Notes under the pieces: generated by a model
The model's input: only the letters and a program-made list of their open reading frames with translations
Databases searched by the model: none
What the model was told of the DNA's origin: nothing
Translations under genes and position numbers: made by a program
NCBI RefSeq assembly: GCF_900162825.1
Contig: NZ_FUGE01000086.1
Span: forward strand, 1 to 32,114
Length of the DNA stretch: 32,114 nucleotides
Reading direction: 5' to 3'
Origin: Psychrobacter piechaudii
Lineage (GTDB): Bacteria; Pseudomonadota; Gammaproteobacteria; Pseudomonadales; Moraxellaceae
Shown here: positions 1 to 934 of the stretch, one piece after another
Numbering within the stretch: position 1 is the first letter of the stretch
Layout of the letters: each line of letters starts with the position of its first letter

Positions 1-4
1 GTAG

Positions 5-145
5 CTTGAGGGTAGAGCAGGCTTGCGAATAAGAGGATGGGCTTGTGCTGAGTGTGGCACATGGCATGATAGAGATATCAATGCTGCTAAGAACATCCTT
101 GCGGTCGGGCTTGACCGTCTAGCTGTAGGAATCCCCTCGGTTTAG
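5..145 (+). pseudogene. tnpB: TnpB C-terminal fragment (RNA-guided nuclease of IS200/IS605 elements), frame closed upstream
   Basis: The frame reads through a zinc-finger half (C-A-E-C) and the motif [10 protein letters not shown] to a TAG stop at 143-145, ending LAVGIPSV. HDRDxNAA is the third RuvC motif of TnpB, and the preceding CxxC is the second half of its zinc ribbon; both are hallmarks of the family's C terminus. Only 46 codons are visible because the window begins here. The frame is closed at 2-4 by TAG. The preceding bases would continue a TnpB-like serine-rich stretch in another frame, so a point nonsense change or a one-base deletion is possible. Whether the rest is intact upstream cannot be seen. 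Confidence 0.65.
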
Positions 146-152
146 CGAGGGG
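133..152 (+). repeat. IS right-end hairpin
   Basis: CCCCTCG at 133-139 pairs perfectly with CGAGGGG at 146-152 around the loop GTTTAG, which contains the tnpB stop codon. In this family such a hairpin is bound by TnpA and also forms the 3' end of the omega-RNA scaffold. Confidence 0.75.
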
Positions 153-162
153 AGGAGGTCAA

Positions 163-934
163 TATTTGTAGTGGTTTGGCTCAGGGCGTGGATGCTCAAG
201 CACATTTGGGGGCGTTGTCTCAGCCTGCTGAATATGCAGGGCGTAGTGTGGGCGTGATGGGCACCGGTATTGATGTGTGCTATCCCAAACAGCATCAGGC
301 CTTATTTGAGCGGATGATTAGAGAGGGTGGGTGTATTATCAGTGAGCTTTTTCCTGGAACGCCGCCCCACAAGCATACTTTTCCTAGGCGCAATAGAGTT
401 GTGGCTGGGCTCTGTTTGGGTACCGTTGTGACCGAAGCGGCATTACAGAGTGGGTCATTAATTACCGCACGGCTAACCTCAGAGCAAGGCAAACAGGTTT
501 TTGTGCTGCCTAGTGACATCGATAATATCAATGCTCAAGGTTGCCATCATTTGATTCGTGAAGGCGCGACCTTGGTCTATCATCCCGATCAAATCATGAG
601 TGATTTATGCCATCAGTTGCTTGCCCCTGTAGCGATATCAGAGGCCAAACATGATTCAAGCGGTTATAACAAGCACTCAAGTCCTAACTCTTCTTTCTCC
701 GATAGCACCACTACACCTAATAATAACGAGAATCCTATTCTAAAACCGCAGAAGTCTGTTACTATTTCTGAACACCTACAGCCTTTGTGGGTCCATATTC
801 AATTTGAGTTGCAGGATTTAGATGCATTAATTGCCAAAACTAAATTAGATACCGCCACCTTATTAAGTCAGCTGATGGAGCTTGAGTTAGGCGGTGCTAT
901 TTGTGAAGTGGGCGGTCGTTATCAGCGTCTTTAA
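163..934 (+). pseudogene. dprA: DprA (Smf), DNA-processing protein A, 5' part lost to IS insertion
   Basis: DprA loads RecA onto incoming single-stranded DNA during natural transformation in the cytoplasm. The frame begins inside the Rossmann-like SMF domain: ICSGLAQGVDAQAH at the IS junction is the conserved SGLAxGID stretch. It is followed by GTGIDVCYP, FPRRNRVVAGL and the SGSLITARL segment, all typical of the second half of that fold. Residues near the end (about LQPLWVHIQFELQDLDALI onward) form the usual C-terminal winged helix. About 255 codons remain; full-length homologues have roughly 370-390, so the N-terminal SAM-like domain and first part of the Rossmann fold are missing. A TTG at 176 could in principle start a short product, but it would lack half the core. 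tsaC follows after 87 bases, a conserved arrangement in Pseudomonas relatives. Confidence 0.85.

What the first reader, a model, noticed from the sequence alone, without database searches (positions are those of the whole stretch)
133..182. An IS605-type TnpB element sits in dprA, and its guide RNA would be templated on dprA itself
Seen: a TnpB C terminus, the right-end hairpin and GTCAA are directly followed by the dprA SGLA stretch. Known: in TnpB systems the omega-RNA spans the tnpB 3' end plus the right end, and its guide is the roughly 16-20 bases just beyond. Inference: the guide would be about 163-182, i.e. dprA sequence, so TnpB activity would cut an uninterrupted dprA on a sister chromosome or on incoming transforming DNA. 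This could fix the competence-disrupting insertion.
Basis: partly seen in the sequence, partly recalled or inferred. Interest (0 to 1): 0.7.

Follow-up and report, generated by a model that had tools for sequence, protein, structure and literature searches.

The report
Jumping gene inside dprA, guide inferred
A common TnpB-carrying insertion sequence sits at its usual target motif inside the DNA-uptake gene dprA of a Psychrobacter-like bacterium; the guide RNA it would make points at dprA, which is expected of such elements, and this copy's own nuclease gene looks broken.

Summary
Bases 1-162 are the right end of an IS200/IS605-family tnpB element with dozens of copies in this genome; dprA starts at 163. 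The two closest relatives carry the uninterrupted site, TTTAT|TATTTGTAG, and TTTAT precedes 31 of 34 left ends read, so the right junction is that of a canonical insertion and the guide position holds dprA bases. Every TnpB element is built this way; nothing new is needed. (1) The window's copy belongs to a frameshifted class (14 of 36 right ends in this genome, 0 of 45 in P. pasteurii) lacking the second zinc-finger pair and the RuvC-III aspartate, so only TnpB from another copy could use its guide. (2) comEC is also broken, so transformation is probably already lost. (3) TTTAT plus at most 2 mismatches in 16 occurs in 2 of 78 dprA genes, both of close relatives. The dprA 5' half and the left end were not found, but 18 of 33 contigs sampled read only N, so simple insertion and insertion plus deletion both stay open. 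A function at dprA is unproven. Verdict: ordinary insertion, new member of a known kind.

The parts
1..32 (+). 3' part of tnpB in the upstream reading frame; in this frameshifted class the protein would end at TAA 30-32
   Evidence: sequence; other copies give the upstream frame; the string at 1-21 is the 21-nt class; truncated proteins of two sister copies
5..145 (+). ancestral tnpB C-terminal frame, now out of frame: second CxxC, Ruv[13 protein letters not shown], ...GIPSV, stop 143-145; also part of the presumed omega-RNA scaffold
   Evidence: intact relatives L040, L066, L076, L081, L087 carry a near-identical C terminus in frame
102..117 (+). scaffold stem-loop 1 (CGGTC...GACCG)
   Evidence: alignment of 27 right ends: 99.3% of cells paired, one of 5 pairs with changes on both sides in 4 sequences
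133..152 (+). right-end hairpin CCCCTCG-GTTTAG-CGAGGGG
   Evidence: 89.4% of cells paired in this helix as aligned
158..162 (+). GTCAA, right end of the element
   Evidence: right ends; dprA alignment to relatives starts at 163
163..182 (+). guide position of the presumed omega RNA: dprA bases TATTTGTAGTGGTTTGGCTC (16-20 nt)
   Evidence: position by analogy with ISDra2 reRNA (PMC8612924, passages read); match to intact alleles; no RNA data
163..934 (+). 3' part of dprA (from ICSGLAQGVD to the stop), still open

Best explanation
A copy of a tnpB element of the IS200/IS605 family (the seven full-length copies read are 1234-1237 bp, tnpB-only, with ends TTTAT|CACC... and ...GTCAA|flank) inserted 3' of TTTAT in the Phe-Ile-Ile codons of dprA and broke the gene (right junction shown, left side not seen). 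As in other such elements the right end is expected to be read as the scaffold of an omega RNA whose guide is whatever follows, here dprA (inferred). A working TnpB would use it to cut copies of the site that lack the element, so that repair from the filled copy restores it (proposed for ISDra2, inferred here). The tnpB of this copy is very probably dead by frameshift, so any such effect needs TnpB from intact copies elsewhere in the genome. The loss of dprA is best seen as one insertion-sequence hit in an insertion-rich lineage whose comEC is also broken, not as a system aimed at competence. The question of deletion on the left side (first rival) is left open by this statement, so the odds given do not add to 1.
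For: Right end shared with many copies. dprA continuity from exactly 163. Empty site TTTAT|TATTTGTAGTGG in both closest relatives. TTTAT at 31 of 34 left ends, the others GTTAT (2) and TTTAG (1). Seven distinct full-length copies (one in this genome, five in P. pasteurii, one in G022) with room for tnpB only, plus one shortened to 858 bp. TnpB identity: NCBIfam guided_TnpB E 5e-75, Pfam OrfB_IS605 and Cas12f1-like_TNB, PDB TnpB chains. Two right-end stems kept in 27 right ends. Frameshifted class 14 of 36 exact-pattern matches in G000, 0 of 45 in G005. comEC split and with a stop. G000's Y1 transposase matches lie at three loci: one with stops, one broken, one cut by a contig end. The close relative G023 has no match to the left end and an intact dprA. 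Reference mechanism: PMC8612924 (passages), PMC11870625 (abstract).
Against: The element's left end and the dprA 5' half next to it were not seen, so a two-sided insertion is not shown. Only 162 bp of this copy are in the contig, so its frameshift and its lack of tnpA rest on the string at 1-21 and on sister copies. No RNA or cleavage data. Covariation support is modest: 3 of 12 pairs change on both sides against 1.6 on average in shuffles, reached by 39 of 500, and the stems also serve TnpA as DNA (general knowledge).
Confidence: 0.8

Rival explanations
1. Insertion followed by loss of the dprA 5' half, for example by recombination between two copies of the element on either side of it; the window's element is then a hybrid. 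(A refinement of the best explanation, not its opposite.)
For: DprA residues 1-166 find nothing real in G000 (best E 0.11) but ring in 5 of 5 relatives; G023 DNA upstream of the junction also finds nothing. The contig that carries thrC, the upstream neighbour in G005, ends 484 bases after the thrC match, inside an IS630-type element.
Against: A piece of roughly 600 bases between two repeats would sit on a short contig, and 18 of the 33 contigs sampled read only N, so absence is not shown. Nothing visible requires a deletion.
Confidence: 0.4
2. The insertion works as a TnpB gene drive on dprA: TnpB supplied by intact copies, with the dprA guide, cuts uninterrupted dprA in sister chromosomes or in partly diploid cells and fixes the broken allele.
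For: Correct TAM and guide geometry; at least one intact TnpB in the genome (G000:C247); drive reported for IS200/605 elements in plasmids (PMC11870625, abstract only).
Against: This copy's tnpB is frameshifted; RuvC was essential for omega-RNA processing by the TnpB tested in PMC10278001 (passages). Use in trans is untested. A recipient without DprA and ComEC is not expected to take up alleles. P. pasteurii carries many copies of the element and an intact dprA with TTTAT, so the element family as such does not force this insertion. No expression data.
Confidence: 0.12
3. The frameshifted class is a nuclease-dead TnpB used as an RNA-guided DNA binder (TldR-like).
For: The class reached 14 copies in G000; of the two truncated proteins looked at, both keep the alternative Glu and the longer one also RuvC-I.
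Against: It loses half the zinc finger and the C terminus; its guides are just the flanks of scattered copies; transposition in trans explains the copy number. TldR is known to me from the listing and from recall.
Confidence: 0.03

Closest known systems
ISDra2 / TnpB-reRNA (IS200/IS605, Deinococcus; PMC8612924, passages read)
   Same: TnpB with C-terminal zinc finger, right-end RNA with guide from the flank, insertion 3' of a fixed pentanucleotide that equals the TAM (TTGAT there, TTTAT here)
   Different: No tnpA in the full-length copies read; RuvC-II Glu in the alternative place; the copy at dprA is of a frameshifted class; no RNA or cleavage shown
IS1341-type (tnpB-only) elements (PMC9956272, abstract and outline read)
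   Same: tnpB as sole gene (tnpB-only as definition is recalled)
   Different: Dozens of copies in one genome; related elements with a divergent tnpA exist in the genus (L018, L041)
TnpBs with rearranged RuvC-II, Ealt (PMC10711439, passages)
   Same: ExxxxxxCxxC present in 6 of 6 proteins; Gly aligns with the Glu of ISDra2 TnpB (that this Glu is the catalytic one is recalled)
   Different: DLG, not DPG, at RuvC-I, so not a pro-Fanzor; IS200/IS605-type ends
Mobile elements in competence genes (PMC4774983, passages; PMC12955456, abstract and outline)
   Same: A mobile element breaks a competence gene; comEC breaks are described in both
   Different: The passages read name comYC, comFA, comK, comM, radC and comEC, not dprA, as hit; no targeting integrase here

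Membership tests
IS200/IS605 family (tnpB-only, IS1341-like group) | TnpB with RuvC D-E-D and zinc finger | tested here: met
   Met for four intact sister proteins looked at, with Glu in the alternative place; the window copy itself is cut by the contig and of the frameshifted class
IS200/IS605 family (tnpB-only, IS1341-like group) | subterminal hairpins at both ends | tested here: met
   left ends (hairpin seen in the printed sequence, not folded); right ends; for the window copy the right end only
IS200/IS605 family (tnpB-only, IS1341-like group) | insertion 3' of a fixed short motif, no target duplication | tested here: inconclusive
   motif TTTAT in 31 of 34 left flanks and at the empty dprA site; the left flank of this copy was not seen, so absence of a duplication is not tested
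IS605 proper (tnpA + tnpB) | Y1 tnpA inside the element | tested here: not met
   seven full-length sister copies have room for tnpB only; the window copy could not be read to its left end; elements with tnpA occur elsewhere in the genus
TnpB-omega RNA guide system | guide next to the right end with the TAM 5' of the matching target | tested here: met
   TTTAT plus 1 or 2 mismatches in 16 in P. phenylpyruvicus and P. pasteurii, 2 of 78 dprA genes
TnpB-omega RNA guide system | RNA expressed and processed; cleavage | not testable with these tools
   no reads or assays on hand
TnpB-omega RNA guide system | catalytically complete TnpB in the copy at dprA | tested here: not met
   frameshifted class; two sister proteins of the class lose the second CxxC and RuvC-III Asp; inferred for the window copy from bases 1-32

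The most novel reading that the evidence does not exclude
TnpB from intact copies, loaded with the RNA of a dead copy, drives a competence-null dprA allele through the population: a nuclease-dead element kept and spread by its siblings' nuclease in a gene whose loss also stops curing by transformation.
Probability: 0.08. Interest if true: 0.7.

Novelty: new member of a known kind. Interest (0 to 1): 0.3.

Why it matters
It gives a natural case in which a TnpB guide position holds a competence gene, and a genome where intact and frameshifted copies of one element coexist, so use of guides in trans can be tested. For dprA itself the meaning is modest: an insertion-rich genome has probably lost two transformation genes.

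Tried and rejected
Tried: finding the dprA 5' half by DNA and protein searches of the window's own genome. Nothing was found; inconclusive, because 25 of the 40 pieces fetched, from 18 of 33 contigs, read only N. Rejected: an accidental chimera at the junction, because it falls at the shared right end of many copies and at the family's target motif. Rejected: a described Rfam RNA at gathering level (none of the matches listed reaches it). Tried: the same-site insertion G000:C197 / G005:C38 as the origin of the frameshift. The two differ at 18 of 325 aligned positions, more than C197 differs from the four other frameshifted G000 copies of similar length (11-16), so no origin could be named. An IS4-family label for the repeat in the hairpins was an idea of mine (it stands in a note); Pfam gave no hit and NCBIfam only a weak FlhF match far below its cut-off, so it is left unnamed. 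No structure prediction was run.

Full report
What is there. Bases 1-162 are the right end of an insertion sequence present in many copies in the same genome (40 of 102 candidates were scored and all 40, the window included, matched; 94-99% identity outside the window). Right ends found by a pattern that includes GTCAA are followed by different flanks (23; 42 after dropping one chance match; the window is counted in both). From base 163 the window is dprA: the alignment to two intact loci starts exactly there, 87% identical to G023 and 79% to G005, and Pfam recognises DNA_processg_A from profile position 74 and DprA_WH.

Why it is an insertion. Both relatives read TTTAT directly followed by TATTTGTAGTGG, the sequence that follows the element here. 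TTTAT precedes the left end in 31 of 34 distinct left ends that I could read; the others have GTTAT (2) or TTTAG (1). These come mostly from the 30 loci returned, which listed 80 matches in two genomes (40 each, capped), so not all copies were read. G023 has no match to the left end. Seven distinct full-length copies are 1234-1237 bp and hold one open frame of 373-374 codons stop to stop, tnpB; an eighth is shortened to 858 bp. One of the seven lies in the window's genome, five in P. pasteurii and one in G022. The protein is a TnpB (NCBIfam guided_TnpB E 5e-75; TnpB chains in the PDB). RuvC-I reads GIDLG in 5 of 6 proteins looked at (the sixth is too short); a Glu six residues before the first CxxC is present in 6 of 6, the alternative arrangement described in PMC10711439 (passages), and Gly aligns with the Glu of ISDra2 TnpB (that this Glu is catalytic is recalled). 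Elements with a divergent tnpA occur elsewhere in the genus.

The guide. In ISDra2 the RNA covers the tnpB 3' end and right end, and its last 16 or so bases come from the flank (PMC8612924, passages). By position the guide here is 163-178 or 163-182. Of 80 dprA loci from named genomes (the best 80 of 110 found), 78 could be read at this site: TTTAT is present in 4 of 78, and two match the guide with at most 2 mismatches in 16, P. phenylpyruvicus (1) and P. pasteurii (2). So the guide would act within the species and perhaps on the nearest relatives. Two stems of the right end are kept in an alignment of 27 right ends (27 of the 33 distinct sequences): 93.5% of cells paired against 88.8% in shuffles, 12 cells changed on both sides against 2.9, but only 3 of 12 pairs changed on both sides, reached by 39 of 500 shuffles. 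This is modest, and the hairpins also serve TnpA as DNA (general knowledge). The RNA of 30-182 folds somewhat better than shuffles (z -2.4, 4 of 200 shuffles as good).

The copy at dprA is probably dead. An exact-pattern search found two length classes near the tnpB 3' end: in G000 14 of 36 are one base shorter, the window among them; in G005 0 of 45. The shorter class ends TnpB soon after the first CxxC, without the second CxxC and the RuvC-III DRDxN (two proteins, one long enough to show RuvC-I). In the window the stop would be TAA at 30-32 (frame taken from sister copies). An intact TnpB exists at G000:C247. RuvC was needed for omega-RNA processing by the TnpB tested in PMC10278001 (passages). 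G000's four Y1 transposase matches lie at three loci: one interrupted by stops, one broken, one cut by a contig end, so an intact one cannot be excluded.

The left side. In P. pasteurii thrC (a partial protein, below the NCBIfam cut-off) lies just upstream of dprA. In G000 the contig with thrC ends in an IS630-type element: HTH_23 over its Pfam cut-off, a sub-cut-off NCBIfam IS630 match. Neither G023 DNA upstream of the junction, nor whole DprA, nor its first 166 residues (5 of 5 relatives ring) finds the 5' half. This does not prove a deletion: a piece of some 600 bases between two repeats would be a short contig, and 18 of 33 contigs sampled read only N. PF02481 finds one dprA in the genome, the window's, with the same reservation.

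Competence. comEC is split over two contigs by IS630-type ends, between residues 434 and 441 of the P. phenylpyruvicus protein, and its 5' part has an in-frame stop. With both genes broken, cutting of incoming transforming DNA has little to act on. Other competence genes were not checked. Mobile elements in competence genes, comEC among them, are known (PMC4774983, passages; PMC12955456, abstract). My search of the open library for TnpB, natural transformation, competence and IS200 (32 papers with at least 3 terms, titles and abstract starts of 15 seen) showed none on a TnpB guide directed at a competence gene; that is not proof of absence.

Verdict. The sighting is right and the geometry canonical; the special meaning for competence is an unproven and not very likely extension. 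Interest 0.3.

Noticed in passing
window 101-175; L087 428-564; L269 1376-1548: Rfam HgcC (RF00062), called functionally unresolved in PMC5732400 (passages), matches this right end over its full model, below its gathering score of 50: window 21.4 bits, E 0.0066; L040 22.1 bits; L041, L076, L087, L221 but not L039 or L066. In a Saccharolobus plasmid it overlaps sot0042 at the 3' end of a tnpB gene next to tnpA (41.3 bits, E 2e-7, also below gathering). HgcC looks like a TnpB omega-RNA family; the original HgcC loci were not examined.
   Followed up: partly
G000:C55 and G000:C265 (L239, L240): comEC is split by an IS630-type element and carries an in-frame stop in its 5' part.
   Followed up: yes
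L091, L093, L095, L098 (G000), L048 1-305 (P. pasteurii): Another repeat (end CATAGGTATCTACACAAA, no Pfam match) sits inside terminal hairpins of the tnpB element: left ends in four G000 loci, a right end in P. pasteurii, as if it targeted those palindromes.
   Followed up: partly
G000:C197 and G005:C38 (L050, L040): Same insertion site in two species, but the G000 copy is of the frameshifted class and the P. pasteurii copy is not; 18 of 325 positions differ. Conversion between copies is possible.
   Followed up: partly
G000 genome: The frameshifted tnpB class has reached 14 of 36 exact-pattern copies in one genome and 0 of 45 in P. pasteurii, presumably moved in trans.
   Followed up: partly
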